Under the pieces are notes generated by a model that was given only the letters and a program-made list of their open reading frames with translations, had not been told where the DNA came from and did no database searches. The translations under genes and the position numbers were made by a program. Below are positions 21,065 to 60,272 of a stretch of DNA of 64,000 nucleotides, piece by piece (within the stretch, counting starts at the first letter, position 1; every line of letters begins with the position of its first letter). Location: positions 35,432,402 through 35,496,401 of the forward strand of contig CM034238.1 in the NCBI GenBank assembly GCA_019916065.1, written 5' to 3'. Origin of the DNA: Vitellaria paradoxa. Lineage: Eukaryota > Streptophyta > Magnoliopsida > Ericales > Sapotaceae.

Positions 21065-22576
21065 TGATTACACTTGAAAAGTGTAATTACACACTCCCTA
21101 ACTCAACACTTATTCATGCATTAAAATAAGTAAAGTTGAAGTTTTAGTGTTATTGTGTTACTTATACTTTTATTATTTTATTTGGTGGAAAAAGGGCAAG
21201 GATGTCGAAGTTTATAGCTATGGAGAGGGCCAAGAAGATAAAGAAAAAGTCATGGTTCGAACCTCATCTTCAATGGAAAAGACTAGCCCAAAGACCCAAC
21301 CAAGAGAAGGAAAGAAAGCAATGAAGGAAAAACTAAACGGTCCCCACCGTCACCCAGACGGTCGGGACCACAGAAAGTACAAATCTTCAGATGGTCCCGA
21401 CCCCCTTTCCAGACGGTCGGGACCACCCGTGATTTACAATAGCCGCGTGAAAGCTCCTCTTCTAGGGTTTTCTTGCATCTCTATAAGGACCCATTGCACG
21501 GCCAAGGAAGGAGGAAGCCCCTTTTGATTTTGCACCTTCAATTGAGCGTTAGAATAGAATTTTGAGAGTTTTTAGATTAGTTTTTTTTTAAACTTGGATG
21601 CGTGGATTCATGGTTTTCGTTGGAGCTTTCATAGTTGTCTTTGTAGTGATTCTTCACCTCGTCTTTTATATTCGCTTTATATTGTAAGTTGCACTTTAAT
21701 CTATTTCGTTTTATTTCGATTTTTTTCGTAATATCATGTTTTGCTTGTTTTAATTCTCTTTTCGTATGATTGAATGCTATTATATTGTTTTTAAGATGCT
21801 TAAAGTAGTCGTAGCGTAAAACCCTAGTTCTTGATTCAACGAATCAAGAATGGGTAGTTCACGAAAAACCTTAAGGTGTTAGTAGACCCTTCGCATGGGT
21901 TGTGAGAGCTCATGCGTAAGGATCTACCGTGTTAAAATCTATTTTCAACTTGTTTCGAAAACATTCAAAATCGAAAATCTTTAACCATACTCGTTTGAAG
22001 TCACTGGTATGGGTTCTCAAATATAACCGTTTACATACTTTTGAATAAGGTTAAAAATAGGTTTCGAATTCATTTCTAGTTTCGTTTGTTTGAAAAACTT
22101 TTGGAAACAAAGGTCTTTAACCATATCCGCTTGAGATCACTGGTACTGACCTTTGATTACAATATTCTTAACACTTTTCGAATTAAACCCTAATCTAGTT
22201 TTGAATAAAAACATCCCAAGGTAAAGTAGTGAACTACCCGGACTTGAAAGTTGGATCAAGAACCTTTTTAGTATCGTGCTTGTTATTTAATTTAATTTAT
22301 GAGTTGATTTATTCACTTTAAAATTTAGTGTAGATGCTTTGTTTGCACTTTAAATTTAAATTGAATTTCTTTCATTTAGAATCGAAAACAAAAGTTTGAG
22401 TTGCTAAAAAATTAGTTTAAATTAATTTAGGTTCACCTACTAATCAAGAGAACAAGTCTAGAGCTTTTAACAAAGCCCTCCCTGTGGATTCGACCTCGGA
22501 CTCACCGAGTTTTAAAACTACGACTGCCCTCTTGCACTTGAGAGGTAGAACCCGAAACACAATTTAGGGTCGGTCA
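21065..22576 (+). repeat. TR-GAG-1 5' LTR
   Basis: It starts TGATTACACTTG and ends GGGTCGGTCA (TGA...TCA ends). The first 23 bases hold a perfect hairpin with 9-base arms ATTACACTT and AAGTGTAAT around GAA. The promoter region has four GGTC-centred repeats (about 21339-21425) and a TATA box CTATAAG at 21481-21487. A 126-codon frame at 21147-21527 overlies these signals and is not considered a gene. Confidence 0.85.
21481..21487 (+). promoter_or_regulatory. Probable TATA box of TR-GAG-1
   Basis: CTATAAGG in the 5' LTR, matched by TTTATAAGG at about 27269 in the 3' LTR and by a TATATAAAA form at the equivalent place in TR-GAG-2. Position about 415 bases into the LTR fits a U3/R boundary shortly downstream. 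Confidence 0.5.
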
Positions 22577-22582
22577 AGTTTT

Positions 22583-22600
22583 TGGCACTGTTGCCGGGGA
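22583..22600 (+). promoter_or_regulatory. TR-GAG-1 primer-binding site (tRNA-Asp)
   Basis: TGGCACTGTTGCCGGGGA, six bases after the LTR. It differs from the exact complement of the plant tRNA-Asp 3' end at two positions, both G-to-A or C-to-T changes at CpG sites, as expected from methylation-driven decay. TR-GAG-2 keeps the perfect 18-base site. Confidence 0.8.
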
Positions 22601-22804
22601 GGGCAACTAAGCGCTAGACTTGGGAGTTAAAAGAGAGTTCACTTGAGAAATTGGGTAAGTTTTTTTTTCTCCATCTCTTTATTAGTAGTTTTCTTTCTTT
22701 TGCATATCATATAACCTAGTTTGCATGCTAGTTAACTTAGGTTGCATTTTAGTGTAGTTTTTCTCTTTCTTATTTTATTTTCATTTTATTTTCTGATCTT
22801 AGAC

Positions 22805-24564
22805 ATGGAAGTTGGTGATCTTGTACATGGCCCTTTTGATACCCGAGAATACATAGAGTATCTAGGTGGCATGTTTGGATATGCTTTTACATTAGACACC
22901 TATAGTATTCTTCCTCAATTCTTTGGGCATGAGGAGGAAGACCCATGTCTTCACCTTGATAGGTTTAAGGTAGCATGTGGTTTATGTGATGATGCTAGAA
23001 AGAGTGAGAGACTTAGGTGTATGTTTTTCCCTTTATTATTGCAAAGTGTGGCTGGTGACTGGTGCTATGCTGTAAGTGAATGGGTTTGTACTTGGGAGCA
23101 ATTTCATCAAGCTTTTATTGAACATTTCCTCCCTATTCATCAAACCTTCACCCATGGCCTTCAAATCAAAAATTTTTATCAAAAAAGTGGTGAAGTATTT
23201 TATAAAAGTTGGGAGAGATTTAACAATCTTTTGGAAACATTCCCAAGTCACGGATTAGAGTTAGTGGACATTGTAGCAATATTATATAATGCTCTACCTA
23301 GTAGTTTACACCAGGCGTTTGATCAAGTCTTGATAGGGAATTTCTTGACCTTACCCCAGGTGAGGCATGGTCATTCCTCGAATTTTTCTATAAGCACACC
23401 AGGCCACAGGGAAGACTTAAGCCTAGTTTTGAATATCATGCATTTAAAAGCCACACTGAACCTTCCCCATATACTCCTATTTCACTTGATATTCATGATC
23501 CATCCTTTAGAAGTAGCACATGCATAGAGACTGATTATTGTGCCTATCCCAATCTTATTCCACTCACTGAGGGTCAGCATGAAGAATCTCAGGATTATTG
23601 GCCTTGTGAACCTAATGATGCCCAATTCGGGGACACTTTTCATCAATTTATGCAACATCAAATGATGATCAATGATAATTTGTCTAGGTCTTTCGATGAT
23701 TTTAAAGGACAAGTGTCTAGGTCCTTCGATGACTTAAGAGAGCAACTTTCTATGATAACACAAGCTATGAGCACCAATCTAAGTGGTAACATGACTGAGA
23801 CGTCGACCTCAGACACTATTATAGGCACTAAGTGGGACAATTGCCCTAACTACACTGGGGAAAACACTTGTAATGAGCATTTTTCTCATATTCCTTTAGA
23901 CACTCCTGTTCAGGGTATCCCTCTACCACTTACTGAGAGTCAGGGAGATATGCAATTCTTTCCTACTACCGAGCTTGATGTTCAACCTACCCCTACCATC
24001 CCAGACCTTATTGAGAGTCCTTTGACTCCAACTGAGCATTTGAATGCCACATGGCTCGAGGAACATATCATTGAGTCGGTTGACTCTAGTTCACTCCACT
24101 ACATAATTGAGGTTGAGAGTGGTGCACACCTCTCATCTCCTGACTTAGTCCCATCCAAAAATCTGACTATGGGAATTGTGAGTGACTACCATGAGATCGG
24201 CCATTATTGGGGAGAGGTAGTAGACACGGGGAAGGCTTACATTGACTTTTTGGGTGTTGAGAGATCATTCAAACCCACCATTCCCACACCCATAGATTTC
24301 TTGGGCATTGAAAGACTTATTGAACCCACCATTTCCACATCCATAGATTTCTTGGGTATCAAGAGACTAATTGAGCCAACCATGTCCATACCTGCACTTA
24401 CACTTTGGCCACATCCGAGGTTTCAAGAACCTCACTTGGCCTTTCATTCCCTGGTGTATTTTACACCTGGAAAGCATCCATATTCAGTGCCTAGTGGGCC
24501 CAAAGAGAACATTTTATTTCGTAAACCATTTGTGGATGCATGGGATAAAGAGGGTGTTGGATAA
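22805..24564 (+). pseudogene. TR-GAG-1 gag, interrupted by one frameshift
   Basis: Gag packages the element's RNA into particles. The frame opens at ATG 22805 (MEVGDLVHGPF) and shows a Retrotrans_gag-like core: an EEDPCLHLDRF segment, LRCMFFPL, GDWCY, a WEQFHQAFIEHFLP motif and SWERFNNLLETFPSHGL. A one-base deletion near 23330, judged against TR-GAG-2, shifts the frame; coding resumes in another frame through to a stop at 24562. The C-terminal part lacks a CCHC zinc knuckle and contains a three-copy 17-residue repeat around DFLG (24241-24391). No protease or polymerase follows. The two copies stay recognisably alike after the break, so decay is recent. The frame at 23650-24564 alone would miss the shared upstream part. 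Confidence 0.75.
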
Positions 24565-25065
24565 CACTTTTGTTTTCATTTCATTTGTACATAGTAGATT
24601 GGCTTTTTCATTTTGTTATTTTCATAGTTCTTTTTAATTTGATTCTCTTCCTTTATTTTATTTTCTTTTATTTTTATTTCTTCTTTCGTACTAACCCTTT
24701 TCTTGTTTTATTTTCATTTCATTTTATGTCTAACCTTTTCCATTGAATAGTTTCTTTTGTTTTCTTCAAATAAAGAAGCTCTTGAGGTAATACCTTTCCT
24801 CTCCTTCTTATTTAATCTTGCACTTTCAATTTTGGAACTCCATTATATATAATTGCTGTTGTTGGGACTGCTGTAGAATCTAGGTTGGGGGGTGTTTTGG
24901 GTGATGCCTTAAGGGGCTTGAATAATGGGTGCATGCCTGGTTTAACTTGTGCTATGTTCTTATCTGTGCCTTTTGTGACTATTATTTCATGCTCATCATC
25001 ATGCTCACTTTGCACACTACAGACCCACTTATGCATCATAGTTCTCACATTGAGGACAATGTTTA

Positions 25066-25084
25066 GTTTAAGTTGGGGGTAGAG
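25066..25084 (+). promoter_or_regulatory. Central polypurine-tract-like motif
   Basis: GTTTAAGTTGGGGGTAGAG, closely resembling the 3' polypurine tract (TTCAAGTTGGGGGGTG at 26839-26853). Both are preceded by a GA-GGAC/GGGAC-TA-CAATGTT word. The motif is kept in TR-GAG-2 (36211-36231, reversed). It could serve as a second plus-strand primer. Confidence 0.45.
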
Positions 25085-25860
25085 TTCGCATGATGACTTT
25101 TGTGCTAAAATTGTCAAATTTTTCAAATTTTGAGCATTTTTTAGCTTGAACACACGAATTTAGCACATTTATACTTACATGTCAACCCTTTTGGTTGGTC
25201 AATGGTGAATTTGAGTGAGAAAGTGATAAGTGAATCTTGTTCAAGTATTAATAGGAAACATAATTCAAGTGGAGTGTGTGATGACTTTGTGCATTTTCGG
25301 ACTATCATGGTGAAAAGTTTATATGCTTAGGAGTAGACTTTATTTGATATTGGTTACTTGAGCATCTTTGGACTAGGTAAAGACTTATACCCCTTAATTG
25401 TGAGCTTTTGAGCCTATTATTTCTTTTTCTTGAGGGGTTGCACATAATCACAGCTCTTTTGCTCTTCACTTCGATTTCAATGCACTAATTGCATCACACA
25501 CACTTGCATGAGTTTCACTTGGCACATTATGAGTTGTTGCAAGCTTTGAACATGATGCTAGGCTATCTTTGCTATTGTTGGGCCTTTTCATCCTTCCTTG
25601 ATATGAAATTACCCTAGGAACCAACTTGAAGCCTTTTAATAAAGTGTGTGATATTTATATATATTTTTTTCTTGGCTCCCACCTCATATATTATCCCATA
25701 ACCTTGTTCACATACTTTTAAGCCTTACCCTCACATGTTTTGGGTTATGAAAAGTTCCTCAATGTCAGTGATGTGAGTGGGGATTGGGAATGGAAACTTT
25801 TGAGAGCATATTGAGAGGGAATATTAGGTGGAGAATTTAGCTTATGTTTATTTCATTATT

Positions 25861-25922
25861 TCAAAAAAAAAAAGAAAAAGAAAAAAAAACAAAAGAGAAA
25901 AAAAAAAGGAAAAGAAAAAAAA
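25861..25922 (+). repeat. Long A/G-only tract in TR-GAG-1
   Basis: About 60 bases of A runs with scattered G and one C. The equivalent tract in TR-GAG-2 (35311-35430, shown as T/C) is about twice as long, so it is length-variable. Confidence 0.7.
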
Positions 25923-26840
25923 GTTTGTCATTCATTTTTGCTTATGTAATTTTGGGACCTGTGCATTGTATTATAATTATTGAGAATGTCCCATGAGTAG
26001 TTTGTAAGTTAGTGAATAAGCTTCTTGTTGTAGTTCTTCTTGGGGTTGGAAAGGAAATGGGTAGTTTGGGACTTGTGTGCACTTGAATATCTTTATCCCA
26101 AGACATGTGCCTTGATTTCCATATCTTCCATTGTTCACAATTACCCTTGGCTAAGTTACAACCAAAACAAAGACCTAGTGGATTCTAAGCAAGCAACTTT
26201 TGTATTGTGCATGTAGTGGTCTTGTTTAGGTTGTGTGGTGTGATCTCTTGCATATGCATTGGAACATTATCATGAGCTGTCCACTTTAAACTTTAATGCA
26301 GTTCACTCACATGTTTGTGGGCTTATGTGCAACTAGGATAGCATTTCATGCTATTAGGAATGTGTGAACCCCTGAATGAGTGAATTTCTTTCTATGAGTG
26401 GAATCCTGTGAGCTTTTGAAGTCAAAACTTAGTTTCAGTTATGCTCTTGAGACCTTGTTGAATGAATGAAACAATTTTGCACACATGCTTTTTCTACTTT
26501 GATAGTCCATGCATTTATGCTTAGCACTTGGAAATTACACATGATATTTGGATTTTGTAACTTGCTGAGCTTGAACTTAATTCATTTTTTATCTTGATCA
26601 CTCTTTGACACATTAAGACCATGCCATAGAATTTTGTGGGTAGATTCACTGCAAACCCTCACGAGACCTTACTCGTCCACTAGGGGAAACCTAGGGGTTT
26701 AAGGGGCTTGCTACACGTAGCTAAGTGTAGCCGTGCTTCCAACGAAAAGAGAAATAGGATAATAGTTGCATCGCATTTTAATAAAGAACATCATGCATTT
26801 CATTTTAATAAAGAGCATTGCTAAGGGACTAGCAATGTTC

Positions 26841-26853
26841 AAGTTGGGGGGTG
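26841..26853 (+). promoter_or_regulatory. TR-GAG-1 3' polypurine tract
   Basis: AAGTTGGGGGGTG directly abuts the TGATTAC start of the 3' LTR. This is the expected plus-strand primer position and composition, and TR-GAG-2 has the same tract. Confidence 0.75.
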
Positions 26854-28362
26854 TGATTACACTTGAAAAGTGTAATTACAAACTCCCTAACTCAACACTT
26901 ATTCATGCATTAAAATAAGTAAAGTTGAAGTTTTAGTGTTATTGTGTTACTTATACTTTTATTATTTTATTTGGAGGAAAAAGGGCAAGGATGTCGAAGT
27001 TTATAGCTATGGAGAGGGCCAAGAAGACAAAGAAAAAGTCATGGTTCAAACCTCATATTTGATGGAAAAGACTAGCCCAAAGACCCAACCAAGAGAAAGA
27101 AAGAAAGCAATGAAGGAAAAACTAGACGGTCCCCACCGTCACCCAGATGGTCAGGACCACAGAAAGTACAAATCTTCAGACGGTCCCGACCCCCTCTCCA
27201 GACGGTCGGGACCACCCGTGATTTACAATAGCCGCATGAAAGCTCCTCTTCTAGGGTTTCCTTGCATCTTTATAAGGACCCATTGCACGGCCAAGAAGGG
27301 AGGAAGCCCCTTTTGATTTTGCACCTTCAATTGAGCGTTAGAATAGAATTTTGAGAGTTTTTAGATTAGTTTTTTTTAAACTTGGATGCGTGGATTTATG
27401 GTTTTCATTGGAGCTTTCATCGTTGTCTTGTAGTGATTCTTCACCTCGTCTTTTATATTCGCTTTACGTTATAAGTTGCACTTTAATCTATTTCGTTTTA
27501 TTTCGATTTGTTTCGTAATATCATGTTTTGCTTGTTTCAATTCTCTTTTCGTATGATTGAATGCTATTATATTGTTTTTAAGATGCTTAAAGTAGTCGTA
27601 GCGTAAAACCCTAGTTCTTGATTCAACGAATCAAGAATGGGTAGTTCACGAAAAACCTTATAGGTATTAGTAGACCCTTCGCATGGGTTGTGAGAGCTCA
27701 TGCGTAAGGATCTACCGTGTTAAAATCTATTTTTAACTTGTTTCGAAAACATTCAAAATTGAAAATCTTTAACCACACTCGTTTGAAGCCACTGGTATGG
27801 GTTCTCAAATATAACGTTTACATACTTTCGAATAAGGTTAAAAATAGGTTTCGAATTCATTTCTAGTTTCGTTTGTTTGAAAACTTTTGAAAACAAAGGT
27901 CTTTAACCATATCTGCTTGAGATCACTGGTACTGACCTTTGATTACAATATTCTTAACACTTTTCGAATTAAACCCTAATCTAGTTTTGAATAAAAACAT
28001 CCCAAGATAAAGTAGTGAACTACCCGGACTTGAAAGTTGGATCAAGAACCTTTTTAGTATCGTGCTTGTTATTTAATTTAATTTATGAGTTAATTTATTC
28101 ACTTTAAAATTTAGAGTAGATGCTTTGTTTGCACTTTAAAATTAAATTGAATTTCTTTCATTTAGAATCTAAAACAAAAGTTTGAGTTGCTAAAAAATTA
28201 GTTTAAATTAATTTAGGTTCACCTACTAATCAAGAGAACAAGTCTAGAGCTTTTAACAAAGCCCTCCCTGTGGATTCGACCTCGGACTCACCGAGTTTTA
28301 AAACTATGACTGCCCTCTTGCACTTGAGAGGTAGAACCCGAAACACAACTTAGGGTCGGTCA
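26854..28362 (+). repeat. TR-GAG-1 3' LTR
   Basis: 1509 bp, same ends as the 5' LTR and followed by the GGTAG target duplication. It differs from the 5' LTR by scattered single-base changes and short indels only. Confidence 0.85.
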
Positions 28363-31261: not shown

Positions 31262-32461
31262 ATTTATTATGCATCGTGAGCACAAGTGGGTTAGTGTTCA
31301 TGTTCCAATAGATTTTGTTACAAGTGTGGATCCTGAAAGTTAGGTGGGGCTCGCTGTGATGAATTTAGTTTTACTTTATTAGAGTTGATGTTATTAATTT
31401 AATTAGTTATGATTATAATATTATTTTAATTAGACTTCTTTGATTTGGTTGTAAGGCTATAAAACTAAAGTTATTATTATGTTGGGAATGTGGTGGAGCA
31501 TTATTGCCTAGTTTGACCAAGACTTAATTATAATTACTTTCATGTTAATTTGTCATTGTAGATTGTAGATGTCTATACTAGTGTGGTTATGGCTCTGATT
31601 AGGGTTATAGTTGATATATGCATGTTATGCATGATTACAATTAGTTCATCACTTAGGTTACAAAATCTAGAACGCGACATTATTTCTATAAAGAAATAAA
31701 AAATTACAAATTAATAAAAACACAAGAGCATATAAAGAAAATTAAGAATTTAATTTAATTTTTGGTAAGAAAAAGATAAAAGAGATAAGCAAACAGAAAG
31801 AATGAGAAAATTTTTCCACATTCCCGAGATAAAGTTTATGCACTCTTTCTAATTTTTTGTAGGTTAATGGTTTTTAATTATTGTCGAGGAAAATAAGAAC
31901 ATTCTAAAACAAAGTTATTATTAACTGACCCAAAAAAAAAAAAAACAAAGTTATTATTATTTTAAGTATTCACCAAAAAACCTATATAGAATTAATGTCA
32001 TTATATGTGTATTTGAGAAATACTAAAAATTATTTTTATATAACTATTACAAAAAAATAATTTTTGAATTATGAAAATTCTTGAATAGAGTTAGATCAAT
32101 GATAATGAATCCAGGCAATACACTCAATTAAACAACCAATCACAATAAAAACTCTCTCCTACAACTATATAATATGCTATCTCTCGCTCTCTCTCTCTAA
32201 AGGTGGTCGAACCATCGCCCATCTTGTGTTCTACCTACGAACTCTTTTGATTTTGTGTTTTAGCTTTAAATTTGATGATCGAAGCTTTGACTTCCTTATG
32301 GCATGTCTGCAAACCTCTCTAGGATTCGTCTTTAAGTCCAAGAGAAATCCTAAGGCTTGTGGACTTCTTTATATTTCCTTCTTTTAATCAATTTGAGAAC
32401 TTTTCAACTTGAAAAAACTACAGATTTTTGAATTTTTTTCCTTATGGAATTGGGAAACAAT

Positions 32462-32772
32462 TGATTACACTTGAAAAGTGTAATTACAAACTCCCTAACT
32501 CAACACTTATTCATGCATTAAAATAAGTAAAGTTGAAGTTTTAGTATTATTGTGTTACTTATACTTTTATTATTTTATTTGTAGGAAAAAGGGCAAGGAT
32601 GTCGAAATTTATAGCTATGGAGAGGGCCAAGAAGACAAAGAAAAAGTCATGGTTCGAACTTCATCTTCGATGAAAAGACTAGCCCAAAGACCCAACCAAG
32701 AGAAGGAAAAAAAGCAAAGAAGGAAAAACTAGACGGTCCCCACTGTCACCTAGACGGTCGGGACCACAGAAA
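32462..32772 (+). repeat. Inverted partial LTR (U3 end) at the outer edge of TR-GAG-2
   Basis: It matches the complement of the outer end of the adjacent 3' LTR almost perfectly through GGTCGGGACCACAGAA, then switches at an A run to the complement of the LTR/primer-site border. It includes the GTCACCTAGACGG variant that is typical of TR-GAG-2 and not of TR-GAG-1. The junction has two or three A of shared sequence. Confidence 0.8.
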
Positions 32773-32776
32773 AACT

Positions 32777-34381
32777 TGACCGACCCTAAAAAGTGTTTCG
32801 GGTTCTACCTCTCAAGTGCAAGAGGGCAGTCGTAGTTTTAAAACTCGGTGAGTCCAAGGTCGAATCCATAGGGAGGGCTTTGTTAAAAGCTCTAGACTTG
32901 TTCTCTTAATTAGTAGGTGAACCTAAATTAATTTAAACTAATTTTTTAGCAACTCAAACTTTTGTTTTAGATTCTAAATGAAAGAAATTCAATTTAATTT
33001 AAAAATACAAACAAAGCATCTACTCTAAATTCTAAAGCGAATAAATCAACTCATAAATTAAATTAAATAACAAGCATAATACTAAAAAGGTTCTTAATCC
33101 AACTTTCAAGTCTGGGTAGTTCACTACTTTGCTTTGGGGTGTGTTTGTTTGAAGAACAGGGTTTAATTTGAAAAGTTTTGAAAATGTTATAATCAAATGT
33201 CAGTACCAGTGATCTCAAGCGGATATGGTTAAAGACCTTTATTTCCTAGAGTTTTTCAATTAAACGCCAAAATATTAATAAAAATCTGATTTTTAATTCT
33301 ATTCAAAAGTATTTGATGATTGGTTACGAAAATCCATACCAGTGATCTCACACGGATTTGGTTAAGGGTTTTCGTATTCGAATGTTTTCGAAATAGAAAA
33401 AAATAGAATTGTGAAAGGTAAATTCATTCGTGAAAGGTTTCGCAACCTATGCAAAGGGTCTCGCAACTTACGCGAAGGGTCTCGCAACCTACGCGAAGGG
33501 TTTCGAAACCTATGCGAAGGGTCTCGAAGCCTACGCGAAGGGTTTCGCAACCTACGCGAAGGGACTACGAACGCCCCAAGGCTTTTCGTGAACTACCCTT
33601 TCTTGATTCGTTGAATCAAGAACTAGGGTTTTACGCTAAAACTACTTTAAGCATCTTAAAAACAATCAAATAGCATTCAATCATATGAAAAGAGAATTGA
33701 AACAAGCAAAACATGATATTACGAAACAAATCGAAATAAAACGAAGTAGATTAAAGTGCAACTTACAACGTAAAGCGAATTTAAAAGATGAAGTGAAGAA
33801 TCACTACAAAGACGACGATGAAAGCTCCAATAAAAACCATGAATCCACGCATGCAAGCTAAAAACCTAATCTAAAAACTCTCAAAATTCTATTATAACGC
33901 TCAATTGAAGGTGCAAAAATAAAAAGGGGATTCTTCTCCTCTTGGCCGTGCAATAGCTTTTTATATAGATGCCACAAAACCCTAGAAGAGGAGCTTTCAC
34001 GCGGCTATTGTAAATCACGGATGGTCCCGACCGTCTGGAGAGGGGGTCAAGACCGTCTGAAGTTTTGAACTTCTGTGGTCCCGACCGTCTAGGTGACAGT
34101 GGGGACCGTCTAGTTTTTCCTTCTTTGCTTTTTTTTCTTCTCTTGGTTGGGTCTTTGGGCTAGTCTTTTCCATCGAAGATGAAGTTCGAACCATGACTTT
34201 TTCTTTGTCTTCTTGGCCCTCTCCATAGCTATAAACTTCGATATCCTTGCCCTTTTTCCTACAAATAAAATAATAAAAGTATAAGTAACACAATAATACT
34301 AAAACTTCAACTTTACTTATTTTAATGCATGAATAAGTGTTGAGTTAGGGAGTTTGTAATTACACTTTTCAAGTGTAATCA
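32777..34381 (-). repeat. TR-GAG-2 3' LTR (1605 bp)
   Basis: On the plus strand it starts TGACCGACCC and ends AAGTGTAATCA, followed by the reversed polypurine tract CACCCCCCAACTT (34382-34394). It is longer than its partner at 38712-40255 mainly because of three extra 21-bp units at 33436-33561. Confidence 0.8.
33436..33561 (+). repeat. 21-bp minisatellite in the TR-GAG-2 3' LTR, six units
   Basis: Units read GGTTTCGCAACCTACGCGAAG with small changes. The other LTR has only three units (39372-39434). The 63-bp difference explains almost all of the 61-bp net LTR length difference. Short arginine-rich frames over this array are by-products of the repeat. Confidence 0.85.
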
Positions 34382-35310
34382 CACCCCCCAACTTGAACAT
34401 TGCTAGTCCCTTAGCAATGCTCTTTATTAAAATGAAATGCATGATGTTCTTTATTAAAATGCGATGCAACTACTATCCTATTTCTCTTTTCGTTGGAAAC
34501 ACGGCTACACTTAGCTACGTGTAGCAAGCCCTTTAAACCCCTAGGTTCCCCCTAGTGGACGAGTAAGGTCTCGTGAGAGTTTGCAGTGAATCTACTCACA
34601 AAATTCTATGGCATGGTCTTAATGTGTCAAAGAGTGATCAAGATAAAAAATGAATTAAGTTCAAGCTCAACAAGTTACAAAATCCAAATATCATGTGTAA
34701 TTTCCAAGTGCTAAGCATAAATGCATGGACTATCAAAGTAGAAAAAGCATGTGTGCAAAATTGTTTCATTTATTCAACAAGGTCTCAAGAGCATAACTGA
34801 AACTAAGTTTTGACTTCAAAAGCTCACAGGATTCCACTCATAGAAAGAAATTCACTCATTCAAGGGTTCACACATTCCTAATAGTACATAATGCTATCCT
34901 AGTTGCACATAACCTCACAAACATGTGAGTGAACTGAATTAAAGTTTAAAGTGGACAGCTCATGATAATGTTCCAATGCATACGCAAGAGATCACACCAC
35001 ACAACCTAAACAAGACCACTACATGCACAATACAAGAGTTGCTTGCTTAGAATCCACTAGGTCTTTGTTTTGGTTGTAACTTGGCCAAGGGAAATGGTGA
35101 ACAATGGAAGATATGGAAATCAAGGCACATGTCTTGGGATAAAGATATTCAAGTGCACACAAGTCCCAAACTACCCATTTCCTTTCCAACCCCAAGAAGA
35201 ACTACAACAAGAAGCTTATTCACTAACTTACAAACTACTCATGGGACATTCTCAATAATTATAATACAATGCACAGGTCCCAAAATTACATAAGCAAAAT
35301 GAATGATAGA

Positions 35311-35430
35311 CTTTTTCTTTTCTTTTCTTTTTTTTCTCTTTTTTTTCTCTTTTTCTTTCTTTTTTTTCTTTTTCTTTTTTTTTCTTTTTTTTCTCTTTTT
35401 CTTTTTTTCTCTTTTTCTTTTTTTCTTTGA
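35311..35430 (-). repeat. Long purine (minus) / pyrimidine (plus) tract in TR-GAG-2
   Basis: About 120 bases of T runs with scattered C on the plus strand. It is equivalent to the shorter tract at 25861-25922 in TR-GAG-1. The lysine/glutamate-rich minus-strand frame at 35239-35463 is this tract read through and is not a gene. Confidence 0.7.
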
Positions 35431-36210
35431 AATAATGAAATAAACATAAGCTAAATTCTCCACCTAATATTCCCTCTCAATATGCTTTCAAAAGTTTCCA
35501 TTCCCAATCCCCACTCACATCACTGACATTGAGGCACTTTTCATAACCCAAAACATGTAAGGGTAAGGCTTAAAAGTGTGTGAACAAGCTTATGGGATAA
35601 TATATGAGGTGGGAGCCAAAATATATATATATATAAATATCACACACTTTATTAAAAGGCTTCAAGTTGGTTCCTAGGGTAATTTCATATCAAGGAAGGA
35701 TGAAAAGGCCCAACAATAGCAAAGATAGCCTAGCATCATGTTCAAAGCTTGCAACAACTCATAATGTGCCAAGTGAAACTCATGCAAGTGTGTGTGATGC
35801 AATTAGTGCATTGAAAACCGAAGTGAAGAGCAAAAGAGCTGTGATTATGTGCAACCCCTCAAGAAAAAGAAATAATAGGCTCAAAAGCTCACAATTAAGG
35901 GGTATAAGTCTCTACCTAGTCCAAAGATGCTCAAGTAACCAATATCAAATAAAGTCTACTCCTAAGCACATGAACTTTTCACCATGATAGTCCAAAAATG
36001 CACAAAGTTATCACACACTCCACTTGAATTATGTTTCCTATTAATACTTAAACAAAACTCACTTATTACTCTCTCACTCAAATTCACCATTGACCAAACC
36101 AAAAAGGTTAACATGTAAGTATAAATGTGCTAAATTCATGTATTTAAGCTAAAAAAAGGCTCAAATTTTGAAAATTTTTGCAATTTTAGCACAAAGTGCC
36201 ATCATGCGAA

Positions 36211-36231
36211 CTCTACCCCCCAACTTAAACT
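36211..36231 (-). promoter_or_regulatory. Central polypurine-like motif of TR-GAG-2
   Basis: Reverse complement of the motif at 25066-25084 in TR-GAG-1, with one more G in the run. Kept in the same relative position, just downstream of a CATTGAGGACAATGTTTAG word. Confidence 0.4.
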
Positions 36232-36733
36232 AAACATTGTCCTCAATGTGAGAACTATGAGGCATAAGTGGGTCTGTAGTGTGCAAAGTGAGAATGATGA
36301 TGAGCATGAAATAATAGCCACAAAAGGCACAAATAAGAACATAGCACAAATTAAACCAAGCATGCACCCATTATTCAAGTCCCGTAAGGCATTACCTAAA
36401 ACACGCCCCAACCTAGATTCTACAGTACTCCCAACAACAACAATTATATATGATGGAGTACCAAAATTGAAAGTGCAAGATTAAATAAGAAGGAAAGGAA
36501 AGGTATTACCTCAAGAGCTTTCCTTATTTGAAGAAAACCAAAGAAACTATTCAAAAGAAAAGGTTAGACACAAAATGAAATGAAAATAAGACAAGAAAAA
36601 GGGTTAGTATGAAAGAAGAAATAAAATTAAAAGAAAAGAAAATAAAGGAAGAGAATCAAATTAAAAAAAATTATGAAAGTAAGAAAATGAAAAAGCTAAT
36701 CTACTATGTACAAATGAAATGAAAACAAAAGTG

Positions 36734-38461
36734 TTATCCAACACCCTCTCTATCCCATGCATTCACAAATGGTTTAAGAAATAAAATGTTCTCTACGGGC
36801 CCACGAAGCACTGAATATGGATGCTTTCCAAGTGTAAAACACACCGGGGAATGAAAGGCCAAGTGAGGTTCTTGAAACCTCGAATGTGGCCAAAGTGTAA
36901 GTGCAGGTGTGGACATGGTTGGCTCAATTAGTCTCTTGATACCCAAGAAATCTATGGATGTGGAAACGGTGGGTTCAATAAGTCTTTCAATGCCCAAGAA
37001 ATCTATGGGTGTGGGAATGATGGGTTTGAATGATCTCTTAACACCCAAAAAGTCAATGTAAACCTTCCCCCTGTCTACTACCTCTCCCTAATGATGGCCG
37101 ATCTCATGGTAGTCACTCACAATTCCCATAGTAAGACTTTTGGATGGGACTAAGTCAGGAGATGAGAGGTGTGCACCACTCTCAACCTCGATTGTGTAGT
37201 GGAGTGAACTAGGGTCAACCGACTCAATGATATGTTCCTCAGGCCATATGGCATTCAAATGCTCAATTGGAGTCAAAGGACTCTCAATAAGGTCTGGGAT
37301 GGTTGAGGTAGGTTGAGCATCAAGCTCGGTAGTAGGAAAGAATTGTATATCTCCTTGACTCTCAGTAAGTGGTAGAGGGATATCCTGAACCGGAGTGTCT
37401 AAAGGAATATGAGAAAGATGCTCATTGCAAGTGTTATCCCCAATGTAGTTAGGGCAATTGTCCCACTCAATGCTTAAAGTAGTGCATGAGGTTGATGACT
37501 CAATCATGCTACCACTTAAATTGGTGCTCATAGCTTGTGTTATCTTAGAAAGTTGCTCTCTCAAGTCATCTAGGGCCTAGTTGCACTCGTTATTAAAGCT
37601 CAATTGCTGTTGCATAAATTGACAAAAAGTGTCCTCTAATTGTGCATCATTAGGTTCACAAGACCAATAATCTTGAGGTTCCTCATGCTGGCCCTCAGTG
37701 AGTGGAACAAGGTTGGGATAGGCACAATAATTAGTCTCCATGCATGTGCTACTTCTAAAGGATGGATCATGAATATCAAGTGAAGTAAGAGTATATGGGG
37801 AAGGTTCAGTGTGGCTTCTAAATGCATGAGATTCAAAATTAGGCTTAAGTCTTCCCTGTGGCCTGGTGTGTTCATAGAAAAATTCGAGGAATGACCATGC
37901 CTCACCTGGGGTAAGGTCAAGAAATTCCCTATCTAAGACTTTATCAAACGCCTGGTGTAAACTACTATGTAGAGCATTATATAATATGGCTACAATGTCC
38001 CCTAGCTCTAATCCGTGACTTGGGAATGTTTCCAAAAGATTGTTAAATCTCTCCCAACTTTTATAAAATACTTCACCCTTTTTTGGATAAAAATTTTTGA
38101 TTTGAAGACCATGAGTGAAGGTTTGATGAATAGGGAGGAAATGTTCAATAAAAGCTTGATGAAATTGCTCCCAAGTATAGACCCATTCACTTACAGCATA
38201 ACACCAGTCACCAGCCACACTTTGTAATGATAAAGGGAAAAACATACACCTAAGTCTCTCACTCTTTCTAGCATCATCACATAAACCACATGTTGCCTTA
38301 AACCTATCTAGGTGAAGACATGGGTCTTCCTCCTCATGCCCAAAGAATTGAGGAAGCATACTATAGGTGTCTAATGTAAAAGCATATCCAAACATGCCAC
38401 CTAGATACTCTATGTATTCTCAGGTATCAAAAGGGCCATGCACAAGATCACCAACTTCCAT
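36734..38461 (-). pseudogene. TR-GAG-2 gag, broken by three stop codons
   Basis: Same protein as the gag of TR-GAG-1: Retrotrans_gag-type core with EEDPCLHLDRF, GDWCY, WEQFHQAFIEHFLP and SWERFNNLLETFPSHGL, then the DFLG repeats near the C-terminus. The start codon equivalent lies at 38461. In-frame stops occur at 38420-38422 (an Arg codon CGA turned TGA), near 37574 and near 37085 (TGG turned TAG), and a short in-frame segment present in TR-GAG-1 near the second stop is missing. In contrast to TR-GAG-1, the frame is not shifted around the middle of the core, so the two copies are broken independently. No zinc knuckle and no polymerase domains. Confidence 0.75.
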
Positions 38462-38687
38462 GTCTAAGATCAAAAAATAAAAATGAAAATAAAATGAGAA
38501 AGAGAAAAACTACACTAAAATGCAACCTAAGTTAACTAGCATGCAAACTAGGTTATATGATATGCAAATGAATAAATAACAATGCAAAAGAAAGAAAACT
38601 ACTAATAAAGAGATGAAGAAAAGAAAAATTCACCCAATTTCTCAAGTGAACTCTCTTTTAACTCCCAAGTCTAGCACTTAGTTGCCC

Positions 38688-38705
38688 TCCCCGGCAACGG
38701 CGCCA
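38688..38705 (-). promoter_or_regulatory. TR-GAG-2 primer-binding site (tRNA-Asp), perfect
   Basis: On the plus strand TCCCCGGCAACGGCGCCA, the exact 3' end of plant tRNA-Asp including CCA. Six bases (AAAACT) separate it from the LTR. This identifies the priming tRNA for both TR-GAG copies. Confidence 0.85.
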
Positions 38706-38711
38706 AAAACT

Positions 38712-40255
38712 TGACCGACCCTAAAAAGTGTTTCGGGTTCTACCTCTCAAGTGCAAGAGGGCAGTCGTAATTTTAAAACTCGGTGAGTCCGAGGTCGAAT
38801 CCATAGGGAGGGCTTTGTTAAAAGCTCTAGACTTGTTCTCTTAATTAGTAGGTGAACCTAAATTAATTTAAACTAATTTTTTAGCAACTCAAACTTTTGT
38901 TTTAGATTCTAAATGAAAGAAATTCAATTTAATTTAAAAATGCAAACAAAGCATCTACTCTAAATTCTAAAGCGAATAAATCAACTCATAAATTAAATTA
39001 AATAACAAGCATAATACTAAAAAGGTTCTTGATCCAACTTTCAAATCCGGGTAGTTCACTAATTTGCCTTGGGGTGTGTTTGTTTGAAGAACAGGGTTTA
39101 ATTTGAAAAGTTTTGAAAATGTTATAATCAAATGTCAGCACCAGTGATCTCAAGTGGATATGGTTAAAGACCTTTGTTTCCTAGAGTTTTTCAATTAAAC
39201 GCCAAAATATTAATAAAAATCTGATTTTTAATTCTATTCAAAAGTATTTGATGATTGGTTACGAAAATCCATACCAGTGATCTCACACGGATTTGGTTAA
39301 GGGTTTTCGTATTCGAATGTTTTCGAAATAGAAAACAAATAGATTTGTGAAAGGTAAATTCCTTCGCGAAAGGTTTCGCAACCTATGCGAAGGGTCTCGC
39401 AACCTACGCGAAGGGTTTCGCAACCTACGCGAAGGGACTACGAACGCCCTAAGGCTTTTCGTGAACTACCCTTTCTTGATTCGTTGAATCAAGAACTAGG
39501 GTTTTACGCTAAAACTACTTTAAGCATCTTAAAAACAATCAAATAGCATTCAATCATACGAAAAGAGAATTGAAACAAGCAAAACATGATATTACGAAAC
39601 AAATCGAAATAAAACGAAGTAGATTAAAGTGCAACTTACAACGTAAAGCGAATTTAAAAGATGAAGTGAAGAATCACTACAAAGACGACGATGAAAGCTC
39701 CAATAAAAACCATGAATCCACGCATGCAAGCTAAAAACCTAATCTAAAAACTCTCAAAATTCTATTATAACGCTCAATTGAAGGTGCAAAAATAAAAAGG
39801 GGCTTCTTCTCCTCTTGGCCGTGCAATAGCTTTTTATATAGATGCCACAAAACCCTAGAAGAGGAGCTTTCACGCGGCTATTGTAAATCACGGATGGTCC
39901 CGACCGTCTGGAGAGGGGGTCAGGACCGTCTGAAGTTTTGAACTTTCTGTGGTCCTGACCGTCTAGGTGACAGTGGGGATCGTCTAGTTTTTCCTTCTTT
40001 GCTTTCTTTCCTTCTCTTGGTTGGGTCTTTGGGCTAGTCTTTTCCATCGAAGATGAAGTTCGAACCATGACTTTTTCTTTGTCTTCTTGGCCCTCTCCAT
40101 AGCTATAAACTTCGACATCCTTGCCCTTTTTCCTACAAATAAAATAATAAAAGTATAAGTAACACAATAATACTAAAACTTCAACTTTACTTATTTTAAT
40201 GCATGAATAAGTGTTGAGTTAGGGAGTTTGTAATTACACTTTTCAAGTGTAATCA
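38712..40255 (-). repeat. TR-GAG-2 5' LTR (1544 bp)
   Basis: On the plus strand TGACCGACCC to AAGTGTAATCA, followed by the ACAAT target duplication. TATA-like TATATAAAA (reversed) near 39832-39842. Three 21-bp minisatellite units at 39372-39434. Confidence 0.8.
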
Positions 40256-40317
40256 ACAATTCAATTACAAATTTAATCCTAATTTTGTTTGGATTTTCCA
40301 TTTTTTTGGATTTTAAT

Positions 40318-40841: not shown

Positions 40842-42789
40842 TGTCACGCCCCGAGTTTCACAACCCAAGTACGCGAACAAATAATACATGTTACGCCGTT
40901 CAATAACTTTCCATGTCCCACATCAGAGCCATACACACACACTATGGAGTAATGTAAAGAAAAATAAATAAAATTCATACTTTAAAGTTAAATAAATGCC
41001 TTCGTCAAAACCAACTAGGCAACAAAGCTCCAAAAGCTAAGCTCAAACATCCTCCCAAAGCTAGATAAAAATAATTATAAATCACCTCATAAATAGAGGC
41101 TTATCACAATTCACCAAAAAAAAAATTCTCTAAAGAAAATTCTAATGTAATTAAATAAAAACAAACAAATAAATTCCTAATTTCCATGGTGAGTAGGCCC
41201 TGCGCATGACTCAAATTCGTTACCTACATCACAAGCTGTAAGGGGATGAGCACTAATACCACGTGTGCTCGAAACCCTAATAATAATAATATAAATGCAG
41301 TATGCCCTAGTAAACTACTAAGTGAAACAATTATGCACAGGTAGCAAACTCAAGAAAGAAATTAAATTAATTTATCAATTTGTCTTCGTTACAATTTAAT
41401 TTTTTTTTTCACCACACAACACATCAAAGAAAAACAATTAAATTTTCAGGTACCGCTGCTTGGTTGTCTTGTAGAAACAAGACCCAACCAATATACATCA
41501 TTATTTGATGTCTGCTTGGTTGTCCCGTAGAAACATGACCCAACCAATATACACCATCCTTCGGTGTCTGCTTCCTAAGCCGAAGCCTTAGGAATATAAT
41601 ATGCCACCTTTAGGCATCTGCTCGTTCGTAAGTTACTAGCCTACTGGAATCAATAACTAACCCCGCGCGGGTTTTGGGACTTTCAACCCTTTGGGTACAT
41701 GTACCCGATATTTTCAGTGCCCCTCAATCCTAAACAAAACACAATAAATAAATAAATAAATAAATTCTATCTAAATCCCTACCTTACAATACCTTTGTTT
41801 ATTTAAGTCTTAAAATCTATAGATCGTCAGTTTCTGAAAATTTGTACACAAATAAGCGAATCCAACTATTTCCATAAAGTAACCAATCAATTAATGGGAT
41901 TACACGGATCATCTTCAAATACACACCAAAGTCATCATAATAATTCATATATGTATAAATATATAATTAATTAAATATTATATATAAATGTAATTAGTAA
42001 CCTTTACATGTGTACATGTGTAATCATTGCATATTATGTATATATATTTACATGACTACAAAGTTCCACGTTTTTTTTTTTTTTTTTTTTTTCATATTCC
42101 ATCAATGAGAGGTTGCAGATCACTTTGCCTAATATCCTTTATTCACCCTTAAATATAAACTTGAGGTGACTTTTGATTATAAACATGATGCCACGTGATG
42201 CAAGGTGATGAGTACATATATTGTTGGACACTTTATATATATATATATATGTAGGTATGTAAAACAAAGACTCTATGTAAAACAAGACACGACCTTCCAC
42301 TGAATAGCTCGTTACAGTACATGTCCAAAGAAAAAAAAGTAATAATAATAATAAATAAATAAATCAAATAAATGGGTTCCAGCCCCTTACCTTTATAATT
42401 CAACAACAGGGAAAGATTTGACAAACGGAAGAAAATCCGGCAAAATGGAAGACAAAGAAATCCGTCACCGCTTCTTCTTCCTTTCTACCTCTCTCTCTCT
42501 CTCTCTTTATCTAGGGTTTTTTTTTATCAAAATAATTATAGCATTATATATATAAATTAGCAGAATTTTTATCTTTAACAAATTTAATTAATTTCCTACT
42601 CCCCATATGATTAGGAAAATTACACATTTTTCTCTAAAATTAAAAATCTTTTCAAATATAACCAAAACAAATTGATCTTTTTAATTATAATTAAAAATAA
42701 CAAAAATTTCAAATCATTAAATTTAAATAGCAACTAAATTATCAAATAAAAATATCCAAATTAAATAAGAAAAAAACTGGGTTATTACA
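40842..42789 (-). repeat. Tekay left (3') LTR, 1948 bp
   Basis: TGTCACGCCCCGAG start and GGGTTATTACA end on the plus strand. It includes a poly-T run of about 22 (42069-42091) and a CT repeat near 42490. The polypurine tract in element sense (AAGTGGGGTAGGA) lies at 42790-42802. Confidence 0.85.
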
Positions 42790-42845
42790 TCCTACCCCAC
42801 TTACAAAAATTTCGTCCTCGAAATTTAGGAGGTAAAGAAAGAAAA

Positions 42846-45826: not shown

Positions 45827-45829
45827 GAG

Positions 45830-46264: not shown

Positions 46265-46273
46265 AGTGAAAAC

Positions 46274-47658: not shown

Positions 47659-47815
47659 TTCTCTAAAAATTTACAAAAATATACTAAGGTCAACGCCTTC
47701 TTAACAATTTAAGTCCAACAAAACATCAAATTCACGTATCACAACTAAATAAACTAACATGTAATCACATAATACTTAGAAAAATAAAAGACCCACTGTC
47801 CCTAGGTATTCTAAA

Positions 47816-47832
47816 CCTAGGCTCTGATACCA
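47816..47832 (-). promoter_or_regulatory. Tekay primer-binding site (initiator tRNA-Met)
   Basis: On the minus strand TGGTATCAGAGCCTAGG, three bases from the LTR. The first 12 bases are the usual complement of plant initiator tRNA-Met. Confidence 0.85.
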
Positions 47833-54480: not shown

Positions 54481-55615
54481 TTTACCATATTTTCTAGGGT
54501 GAGCCTATTTGCACTCCAAACGTAGTCTCCTCCACTCCATTCTACTTTTTTCATTAAGTAAAATTATAAAATTATTCCTTTTAACTGGTTATTCTTATAT
54601 ATATATATATTCTCAAATAACATAATTGCTCCTTATAAATAAATATTTATAAATTTATATAAATACTCTTAGGCTTAGTTTGGTACAAAAGACTTGCAAA
54701 AAATATTTTAAACTCTAAAATAATTTTATGTATATTTATATTTTTAACAAGCGTATTAAAATTTATTTTATTTTCCAACTAAATTAAATAAAAAGATCAA
54801 TTTATTTCATTTCTTTTTTATTTACATACTTTTATCATTTAAACTTTTGTCACCAATCTCAAGTAATTTAGTAGAAATCTATATGAAACTCTCAAAAAAA
54901 AAAAAAAAAAAAACTACAAAAATAAGTAAATCAATGTATTAATAATATTAACTTTTAAGCAAAAAAAAAAAGAAAAGAAAATTTGTCATATAAATCATAA
55001 GTATCATTATTCTAAAAACCTATTCTAAAAACCTAATTTGATTTTTTTATAATAGGAAATACTTTTTAAAAAAATTAAAATTAAAAATATTTATCATAGT
55101 AAAGTTATTCACAAGCCATAAGTGAATTTTTTTAAAAATCTAAAGTGGTAATTGCCCACTTATCAACAAAACTTAGAAAGATAAAATTATTTTTGATAAG
55201 TTAATTTTTGGTAAGTTATCTTCTCAATATTTTGTTTATAATAAAAATATATTTTATTATAAAATGAAGCTATATATGGCATTATAATTGTGCCTTTGAT
55301 TAAATTTTTGAATAAGAGTATTATGACATTATAATTACTTAAAACATATTACAAAAATGAAGAGGGACAATTATGTAATTTTACTAATAAAAAAATAAAG
55401 TAAAGTGTAAAAAAGAATTAGAGTACAAAAAAGCTTATCCTATTTTCTATTTCCTATTAATATGGTCAAATTTGATATTTTTTGTAAATTAATTCAATTC
55501 AATTATTAAATTTAAACATGTGTTCCAAACACAAATTTTCATTTATCAAATCAAATTAATTCTTTATTTTAAAATAAAATCAATTCTAAGAAACGAATGT
55601 TTCCAAACAGAGTGT
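54480..55615. other. AT-rich stretch replacing the copia LTR in unit I
   Basis: No gene. Contains poly-A runs near 54893-54912 and 54961-54970. Its start around 54660 (TAGTTTGGTACAAAAGACTTG) and end near 55600 (TTCCAAACAGAGTGTTA) hint at a non-autonomous DNA element, but inverted ends are weak. Confidence 0.3.
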
Positions 55616-56762
55616 TATGAAATTAGGAAACAATTCAATTGCAAATTTAATTGTAATTGTGTTTGAATTTTCCACTTTTAGATTTTACAAATTAGAATGA
55701 ACAATAAAAAAAATTAATAAAAAATAAAAAAATTAAGTAAGTCCTCTCACATAATAGAAAAACATAGAAAATCGAAAGTAAGTGGACATAATTGTCAACT
55801 GATTGTGGAGAAAGTTTGACGGTTAGAATTTAGGGGGAAAAAAATGTACTAAATGTATTTTATTTTATTTTTTATGGTAAGAAATAGGATTAGTTATTCG
55901 CCAGGCCAAGTTAAGAATATTTTTTTTTTTTGGTGTTTTCATCAATCGAGTTTAAAATTAATTCTCAAACCTTTTTTCTTTGAACGGTATTAATTCTCAA
56001 ACTCACTCATGTAAACCTATTTATTTTTTCACAAATATGTAAATTATATTTTACTAAAAATTTAATTTTTATAAGAAAATAAAAATAAAAATATATATTT
56101 ATTTTAATATTTTGAATTAAATTCGGGCCTACAAAATTAATCTCAAGTCAAAATAAAATTAGGATGTGTTAAAACGACCTAGCGAGGCAAGTCTAAAATG
56201 TTTACTCCTAATATAAAAGTACTATATATTATGAGAATGGATGGATTGTAAAAATTTTAAAATAATAAAATGTATTTATCATTTTTGAAGGAAAAGGGTA
56301 AACCAACTTTTAATCTATTGCATTTCTTTGTCCTATCTTTTATTTTTTGCCAAACAGGAGTTATGTTCATCCTCTATTCTATCTTAATATTTTTTTTTCT
56401 TTTTTCTCTTTTGGAAAATAGGCTTGATGGTGTTGGTTCTTTTTCTTGATTGAAAAGTAAAAGAAAAAGGAAAAAGAAATAATTTTCTCATGGCCAGCTC
56501 AAGAATAATGATAAAAAAAACTCTGATAAAAAGTCTTGAATTAGTGGGAGGTTAATATTTAAAAAAAAATAAAGGAGGTTAATCTCTTATACATAAAAAT
56601 TTTTAATAAAAATATTAAAAGTTTAATAAAATTTTTAAAATCGTAAAAAAAGTTACAATCTACATAATCTATGCATAATTCCGTCTCTTGTCAAACTAAA
56701 ATATCTAAGCACCATGTCAGTCTAAAATACTAAACAGGCTTGGTGGTAGACTAGGATTGAGG

Positions 56763-59693: not shown

Positions 59694-60272
59694 TGAAAAT
59701 TCTCGAATCCGATTAGATCGACAATAACAAATTCAGACAAAACACTCAAATAAACAATCAATCACAATAAAACTCTCTCATACAACTCTATAATATGCTC
59801 TTTCTCTCTCTATCATTGTATTTTTATATTGAGCATACACACATATATATGGACTCTATAGATCCAAACAAAGTATGAAACTTAGATTTACAGAAATTTT
59901 GACAAGCTGAACCCTCGGGTTCCTTATGCCTTCCCTACGAACTGCTCTAGAAGAGGGTCGAATCCTTGCCTTGCCTGCGAGTTCTTTTGGTTTTGTGTTT
60001 CAGCTTTAATTTTTTATGATTAAAGCTTTGGCTTCCTTGTGGCATGCCTATAGACTCTCTAAATATCATCTTTGAGTTTGGAGAAATCTTAAGACTTGCA
60101 AATTTCTTCTTGTTTCCTTCTTTAAATCAATTTGTAATTTGTCAACTTAGAAACACTGCAGGCTTAATTACCAAAAAAAAACACTGCAGGCTTTGGAATT
60201 CTTTTCCTTATGAAATTAAGAAATAATTATTTAATCCTAATTTTGTTTCTATTTGTCACTTTTGATTTTACA
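59694..60272 (-). repeat. Right (5') LTR of the old copia element
   Basis: 579 bp, TGAAAATTCTCGAATCCG to TTTGATTTTACA on the plus strand. The following ACTTC (60273-60277) is a decayed form of the AATTA target duplication seen at 32067-32071 and after the partial LTR at 55699. Confidence 0.65.

What the first reader, a model, noticed from the sequence alone, without database searches (positions are those of the whole stretch)
32462..40255. Integrated gypsy element whose two outer ends are the same LTR end
Seen: TR-GAG-2 has both LTRs in minus orientation, but its left outer edge is about 310 bp of inverted U3, so both extremities read TGATTAC outward-in. A perfect ACAAT duplication flanks the composite, not the inner LTR. 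At the fusion point the inner LTR is followed by exactly the AGTTTT that separates LTR from primer site, that is, the first bases copied from the tRNA primer, and then an A-rich microhomology leads into U3. Inference: a chimaeric cDNA formed by strand switching or end joining before integration, leaving two U3 ends, and integrase accepted two U3 ends. I know of no common description of this structure in plant elements.
Basis: partly seen in the sequence, partly recalled or inferred. Interest (0 to 1): 0.75.

Follow-up and report, generated by a model that had tools for sequence, protein, structure and literature searches.

The report
Retrotransposon inserted by two identical ends
A plant jumping gene here was pasted into the chromosome by two copies of the same end instead of one of each, and a second clean case found elsewhere in this genome suggests that fused DNA copies of such elements can still be inserted in the normal way.

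Summary
TR-GAG-2 (32462-40255, minus) has a 5' LTR, internal region and 3' LTR. Its left edge carries 311 bp of inverted U3, so both outer ends are U3 ends (TGATTAC). A perfect ACAAT duplication flanks the composite, and paralogous sequences in the window show the uninterrupted site. The 3' LTR runs into AGTTTT(T), the spacer between LTR and primer site. Normally integrated 3' LTRs lack it, so the fusion was most likely made on unprocessed cDNA before integration. The inverted U3 is about as diverged as the two LTRs are from each other.

It is not unique. The host genome (667 Mb) was searchable. A second, independent two-U3 insertion lies at C8:30800896-30808189: a flipped LTR joined at exactly AGTTTT to an inverted internal region, TSD GGGCC. 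A third chimaera (C11) joins the same spacer to a direct LTR fragment of another subfamily. A fourth (C3) joins it to an inverted LTR fragment without a TSD. For scale, 413 normal spacer-primer junctions were counted.

Best reading: the unprocessed U5 end of a cDNA acquired a second terminus by strand jump or end joining, and integrase used two U3 ends. The joining route is unresolved. New variant of a known kind.

The parts
32457..32461 (.). left copy of the target-site duplication, ACAAT
32462..32772 (+). inverted U3 fragment (first 311 nt of the LTR, complete TGATTAC terminus), opposite in orientation to the rest of the element
32770..32776 (-). junction: AGTTTTT on the element strand = 6-nt LTR/primer-site spacer plus one T; 3-nt overlap with the U3 side
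32777..34381 (-). inner (3') LTR, complete
34382..34393 (-). polypurine-tract region (AGTTGGGGGG then TG) just upstream of the 3' LTR
   Evidence: naming as PPT from general knowledge
37577..38395 (-). gag-like ORF, 272 aa (Retrotrans_gag, below the curated cut-off)
38688..38705 (-). primer-binding site TGGCGCCGTTGCCGGGGA (tRNA-Asp type, recalled)
38706..38711 (-). spacer AGTTTT between 5' LTR and primer site
38712..40255 (-). outer (5') LTR, U3 end at 40255
40256..40260 (.). right copy of the target-site duplication, ACAAT
55615..55687 (+). paralogous uninterrupted site, aligned across the insertion point with a single ACAAT
59974..60270 (+). second paralogous uninterrupted site (70% identity, several gaps, one of 9 nt next to the insertion point)
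21065..28362 (+). TR-GAG-1, normal member of the family used as control: U3 and U5 outer ends, TSD GGTAG, no AGTTTT at its outer U5 edge

Best explanation
TR-GAG-2 is a single insertion of a chimaeric cDNA. Reverse transcription produced an ordinary linear cDNA (U3...U5-AGTTTT). Before integrase trimmed the U5 end, that end was joined to a 311-nt U3-terminal piece of a very similar cDNA in inverted orientation. Either the plus-strand 3' end jumped onto another plus strand at a short T/A match and copied it to its natural 5' end, or two DNA ends were joined by host repair. The product had two U3 termini and no free U5 terminus. The Ty3/gypsy-type integrase, probably supplied in trans by Athila-like relatives, inserted both U3 ends together, giving a normal 5-bp duplication. 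Shown: the structure, the TSD, the empty site, the spacer at the junction, similar divergence of the pieces, and a second two-U3 insertion with TSD. Inferred: timing before integration, integrase action in trans, and the joining route.
For: Perfect TSD around the composite and not around the inner LTR. Empty site in two paralogues. Spacer AGTTTT sits at the inner LTR's edge, but not at the outer edge of TR-GAG-1 nor at the 3'-side LTR of 4 of 4 same-strand pairs within 15 kb. Divergence in U3: inverted-inner 3 substitutions + 1 gap, inverted-outer 4 + 1, inner-outer 5. Independent second case C8:30800896-30808189: LTR(+), AGTTTT, inverted internal region missing only its last 9 nt, inverted 5' LTR, both outer ends TGATTAC, TSD GGGCC; its two LTRs differ at 78 of 1508 sites (64 transitions) and lie at K 0.25-0.31 from TR-GAG LTRs, so it is a different, older subfamily event. 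Third junction at the same border on C11 (TSD ACCCC), fourth on C3. Relatives with the same LTR ends encode protease, RT, RNase H and integrase domains.
Against: No reads were available, so assembly error is excluded only indirectly. The C3 case shows no TSD, one U3 end lacks about 9-10 nt, and a polypurine-tract-like stretch (TTGGGGGGT) lies some 50 nt further out, so that locus is not understood. The C11 TSD is weak because ACCCC makes up 4.2% of 5-mers in its satellite target. The C11 partner piece differs from its own LTRs at about 25% of 706 aligned sites, so a homologous partner is not required. Three further non-primer-site U5+spacer junctions (C8:52075529, C10:17407035, C3:39273427) were not resolved, and C1:71827105 is a 5' LTR with an altered leader. 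One search sorted 42 U5 ends by the presence of AGTT (38 with, 4 without); that split is by definition and is no control.
Confidence: 0.87

Rival explanations
1. Same cDNA chimaera, formed specifically by nuclear end joining of linear cDNA pieces rather than by a polymerase jump.
For: Junction homology, judged by eye, is small: 3 nt (C6), 0 (C8), about 1 (C11), about 1 (C3). Partners come in both orientations and once from another subfamily. The C8 case looks like a 3' LTR broken off near the polypurine tract and re-joined backwards.
Against: Needs a break inside U3 at nt 311 that is otherwise unexplained. Short homologies fit polymerase jumping as well.
Confidence: 0.42
2. One end was inserted by integrase; the other, unprocessed 3' end was extended by a host polymerase on nearby element DNA and joined by host repair, as proposed for aberrant HIV and ASLV proviruses.
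For: PMC5041404 (passages and Discussion read) describes 3' viral ends priming on either strand of viral DNA with short homology. The C3 case (one clean U3 edge, no TSD seen) could fit this.
Against: For the finding and C8, both ends are exact U3 termini with perfect 5-bp TSDs, and the finding has an undisturbed empty site. Host joining is not expected to give this.
Confidence: 0.06
3. Rearrangement after integration: nested or tandem insertions followed by deletion or inversion in the chromosome.
For: Nested and recombinant LTR elements are common in plants (Sabot and Schulman). The family is abundant: 413 normal junctions.
Against: Breakpoints would have to fall within 1-2 nt of the spacer border in four separate loci and leave exact U3 ends with TSDs in two. 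An integrated 3' LTR has no AGTTTT to start from (TR-GAG-1; four pairs).
Confidence: 0.04
4. Assembly artefact.
For: LTR families are hard to assemble; no reads were available to me.
Against: Perfect TSDs at two loci and the recurrence of one biologically meaningful border at four loci.
Confidence: 0.03

Closest known systems
Template-switching complex LTR retrotransposons of Triticeae, rice and maize (Sabot and Schulman 2007, PMC1950507; full text read)
   Same: Abnormal plant LTR insertions bounded by one 5-bp TSD and explained by a fault in reverse transcription before integration
   Different: Those are three-LTR complexes with two internal regions, drawn and explained in direct orientation. 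Here an LTR piece or a whole LTR is inverted, both outer ends are U3, and the junction carries the unprocessed spacer
Aberrant HIV/ASLV proviruses with one integrase-made end (PMC5041404; passages and Discussion read)
   Same: A free viral 3' end gains extra viral sequence of either orientation at short homologies
   Different: There the second end is joined by host repair, mostly with large duplications or deletions; here both ends are exact U3 termini with a 5-bp TSD
HIV proviruses with asymmetric LTRs (PMC9278108; passages read)
   Same: Integrated elements whose LTRs differ because of reverse-transcription errors
   Different: Deletions, usually in the 3' LTR; no inverted U3 or two-U3 ends in the passages read
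TR-GAG / Athila-type Ty3-gypsy elements (family of the element itself; the Athila label is recalled)
   Same: LTRs, primer site, polypurine tract, gag-only member plus RT/IN-bearing relatives with the same LTR ends
   Different: Normal members such as TR-GAG-1 end in U3 and U5

Membership tests
Ty3/gypsy LTR retrotransposon, non-autonomous gag-only (TR-GAG) member | Two LTRs, primer site and polypurine tract, 5-bp TSD | tested here: met
Ty3/gypsy LTR retrotransposon, non-autonomous gag-only (TR-GAG) member | gag ORF but no pol domains in this copy | tested here: inconclusive
   Only ORFs of 90 aa or more were listed (5) and 3 of the 5 were scanned: gag-like hit at 20.8 bits, below the 24.1 cut-off; no pol hit
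Ty3/gypsy LTR retrotransposon, non-autonomous gag-only (TR-GAG) member | Autonomous relatives with RT and RNase H upstream of integrase | tested here: met
   C11 and C1 relatives, 10 ORFs scanned: gag, protease, RT, RNase H, integrase, plus PF20167; the Athila label is recalled
Template-switching complex insertion (Sabot and Schulman) | One TSD around the whole composite | tested here: met
Template-switching complex insertion (Sabot and Schulman) | Two internal regions sharing a third LTR | tested here: not met
   one internal region; extra U3 inverted
Aberrant one-ended provirus (Hughes laboratory) | One viral end joined without a short TSD, with host duplication or deletion | tested here: not met
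   perfect ACAAT and contiguous empty site

The most novel reading that the evidence does not exclude
Two-U3-ended insertions are a recurrent by-product of this plant family. cDNAs whose U5 end stays unprocessed are rescued by gaining a second proper terminus from another cDNA strand, and the plant Ty3/gypsy integrase needs no U5 end for concerted integration in vivo. The retained spacer then serves as a genomic record of the true unprocessed cDNA end (AGTTTT; three of the four junctions are compatible with one further T opposite the primer tRNA's last base).
Probability: 0.45. Interest if true: 0.65.

Novelty: new variant of a known kind. Interest (0 to 1): 0.55.

Why it matters
Textbook integration joins one U3 and one U5 end. 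These loci are natural evidence that a plant Ty3/gypsy integrase can insert two U3 ends in the normal, concerted way, and that chimaeric cDNAs reach the chromosome. The leftover spacer marks the unprocessed cDNA end, which is normally lost on integration, and it gives a simple signature for finding such events in any genome whose elements have a long LTR/primer-site spacer. Annotation tools that expect direct LTR pairs could miss or misread them.

Tried and rejected
Considered and rejected: two separate insertions (no second TSD; the remainder of an older element is missing); inversion after integration (no AGTTTT at normal outer edges: TR-GAG-1; four pairs); inner LTR as the true left boundary (AAACT does not match ACAAT).

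Pattern search detail. GGTCGGTCAAGTTTTTH gave 33 hits; all 33 were read (15, 15, 3). By my reading 28 are primer-site variants (C2:44396650 only partly primer-site-like; three are units of one apparent array) and 5 are not: the finding, C11 and its identical copy on small contig C27, C1:71827105 (a 5' LTR with an altered leader followed by a gag ORF), and C8:52075530 (a lone LTR in host-like DNA). GGTCGGTCAAGTTTTM: 3 hits, 1 chimaera (C8:30802398) and 2 variants. GGTCGGTCAAGTTTTGH: 3 hits, 2 variants and 1 old element at C10:17407035 (unresolved). GGTYRGTCAAGTTTTTHH: 4 hits, 1 new and diverged (C3:39273427; unresolved). GGTYRGTCAAGTTTTVH: 5 hits, 1 new, a variant primer site. The C3:21107134 junction was not found by pattern but from two abutting opposite hits. 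A search for three-T spacers (first sent) and one for AGTTTTTG followed by non-G (first sent) did not complete, so the list of chimaeras is incomplete. The empty-site search for the C8 insertion did not complete either.

Source of the inverted U3: one shared derived base (U3 alignment column 250) groups it with the inner LTR. Too little to decide.

Literature: 10 full-text searches. No listed title or abstract start describes an integrated LTR element with two U3 ends. Not all hits were listed (10 of 12, 25 of 34), and subscription journals are mostly not held, so this is not proof of absence.
Full report
OBSERVATION. The window holds two members of one LTR retrotransposon family. TR-GAG-1 (21065-28362, plus) is ordinary: U3 at the left, U5 at the right, TSD GGTAG on both sides, and its 3' LTR ends ...GGTCA directly against the TSD. 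TR-GAG-2 (minus) has its 5' LTR at 38712-40255, its primer site at 38688-38705 after a 6-nt spacer AGTTTT, a gag-like ORF, a polypurine tract, and its 3' LTR at 32777-34381. Left of the 3' LTR lies 32462-32772, the first 311 nt of the LTR in the opposite orientation. Both outer edges therefore read TGATTACACTTG inward, and ACAAT flanks both.

EMPTY SITE. The left flank, one ACAAT and the right flank, joined in a script, align across the insertion point to 55615-55687 (85% identity) and, less well, to 59974-60270 (70%, several gaps, one of 9 nt beside the site). The whole composite is thus one insertion into a site that still exists as paralogues. Random 5-mers of the window match in about 0.2% of pairs.

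JUNCTION. On the element strand...GGGTCGGTCA AGTTTTT CTGTGGTCCC... A normal 5' LTR reads GGTCA AGTTTT TGGCGCC, and inverted U3 reads ...AACTTTCTGTGG. Three T residues could come from either side, so the break lies between AGTT and AGTTTTT, a range that includes the spacer border. The spacer is present in the cDNA next to the primer and is not found at the outer edge of a normally integrated U5 end. Controls: TR-GAG-1, and the four same-strand LTR pairs that lie within 15 kb of each other in the list (C5:26153750/26159568, C7:20400550/20406537, C8:19673954/19679886, C9:47072823/47086784; the finding left out). In 4 of 4 the 3'-side LTR starts matching at query 315-316, the LTR edge, and the 5'-side LTR at 309, spacer included. 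(sorted 42 U5 ends by AGTT, 38 with and 4 without; that is a split by definition, on loci mostly fetched for having the spacer, and no control.) The inner LTR of TR-GAG-2 was therefore most likely fused before its U5 end was processed.

AGE. Over 308-309 U3 positions, inverted versus inner shows 3 substitutions and 1 gap, inverted versus outer 4 and 1, inner versus outer 5. The numbers are small but consistent with one age for all three. LTR divergence is K = 0.016. One shared derived base puts the inverted piece nearer the inner LTR, which is too little to name its source.

THE HOST GENOME. The window lies at C6:35432402-35496401 of a 667-Mb assembly. There are 413 exact matches to the normal junction GGTYRGTCAAGTTTTTGGCRCC. 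Patterns for the spacer without a primer site returned few places, most of them mutated primer sites (28 of the 33 hits; for the rest). Four distinct loci join the spacer to sequence of the element family itself.

(1) The finding, C6.

(2) C8:30800896-30808189: LTR (+) 30800896-30802406, AGTTTT, then the internal region inverted from its nt 4321 (of 4330 in TR-GAG-2 numbering; the missing nine are the polypurine end) down to nt 1, then the 5' LTR inverted. Both outer ends are TGATTAC and GGGCC flanks both. Its two LTRs differ at 78 of 1508 sites (64 transitions, 14 transversions; K 0.054) and lie at K 0.25-0.31 from LTRs of TR-GAG-1 and TR-GAG-2. It is an independent, older event of another subfamily. 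Its empty site was not tested.

(3) C11:5153259-5167656: an element with full-length 5' and 3' LTRs, then AGTTTTT, then a direct LTR fragment (from about nt 829 to the U5 end) that differs from its own LTRs at about 25% of 706 aligned sites. Outer ends are U3 and U5, and ACCCC flanks both. ACCCC is 4.2% of 5-mers in that satellite target, so this TSD is weaker evidence. Contig C27 carries a copy identical over the 3017 bases compared, counted as the same event.

(4) C3:21107134: LTR (-), AGTTTTT(G), then an inverted LTR fragment starting about 117 nt inside the U5 end. The right U3 edge is intact and followed by sequence without a polypurine tract. On the left, U3 is recognisable only from about nt 10, no TSD is seen, and a polypurine-like TTGGGGGGT lies some 50 nt further out. 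This locus is not understood and is not counted as a two-U3 insertion.

Three further loci are unresolved: C8:52075529 and C10:17407035 have U5+spacer against apparently host DNA, and C3:39273427 is diverged. C1:71827105 is a 5' LTR with an altered leader. None of these is counted as a chimaera.

WHERE THE ENZYMES COME FROM. Relatives with the same LTR ends and spacer, at C11 and C1, contain ORFs with gag, protease, reverse transcriptase, RNase H and integrase domains in Ty3/gypsy order, and PF20167. TR-GAG-2 probably moved with such enzymes in trans (inference).

MECHANISM. Shown: one insertion, two U3 ends, 5-bp TSD, unprocessed spacer at the fusion, and recurrence. Inferred: a full-length cDNA kept its unprocessed U5 end, which was joined to another cDNA piece carrying a genuine terminus. 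A polymerase jump explains why the inverted piece runs to the natural 5' end of U3: a plus strand begins there, so copying stops there. It also fits the polypurine-tract break point at C8, where plus strands end or begin. End joining explains the same facts if broken pieces were present. Homology at the joins, judged by eye, is 0-3 nt and does not decide. Only products that end in a proper U3 or U5 terminus can be integrated normally, which would select exactly the inverted-U3 and direct-U5 outcomes seen at C6, C8 and C11 (inference). Three of four junctions are compatible with one T beyond the spacer. In HIV-1 one primer ribonucleotide is left on the minus strand (recalled, not checked), which would give this T.

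KNOWN WORK. Sabot and Schulman (PMC1950507, read in full) described TSD-flanked complexes made by faulty template switching, with three LTRs and two internal regions. PMC5041404 (passages and Discussion) describes viral 3' ends that prime on either strand of viral DNA when integrase fails at one end. PMC2923131 (passages) shows template switching in tobacco Tnt1. PMC9278108 (passages) reports asymmetric HIV LTRs. Ten searches of the open-access library listed no title or abstract start on an integrated LTR element with two U3 ends, but subscription papers are mostly missing from it. In vitro use of two like ends by retroviral integrases is known to me only by recall.

VERDICT. The finding is real and its interpretation is largely right. 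The general phenomenon, chimaeric cDNA reaching the chromosome, is known. The two-U3 form with a TSD and a retained spacer, seen twice cleanly, is a new variant as far as I could check.

Noticed in passing
window 40842-49791: A separate LTR element (minus), LTRs about 94% identical, with a TGGTATCAGAGC primer site (initiator-Met type, recalled) and TATAA on both sides.
   Followed up: partly
G000 C5:29643493, 29643892, 29644291 (L023-L025): Units with 399-bp spacing, each holding an LTR end, spacer and mutated primer site: an apparent tandem array made from an LTR/leader junction.
   Followed up: no
G000 C5:29655377-29655766: Two LTR U5 ends face each other about 390 bp apart (hits); possibly another inverted arrangement.
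   Followed up: no
G000 C1:71827105 (L042): A 5' LTR followed by spacer and an A-run instead of a primer site, with a 1060-aa gag-protease ORF close behind.
   Followed up: partly
G000 C8:52075529 and C10:17407035: LTR U5 ends with retained spacer against apparently host DNA and no TSD recognised; possible one-ended or host-joined insertions.
   Followed up: partly
window 33432-33563 and 39361-39436: A 21-bp tandem repeat inside the LTRs differs in copy number between the two LTRs of TR-GAG-2.
   Followed up: no
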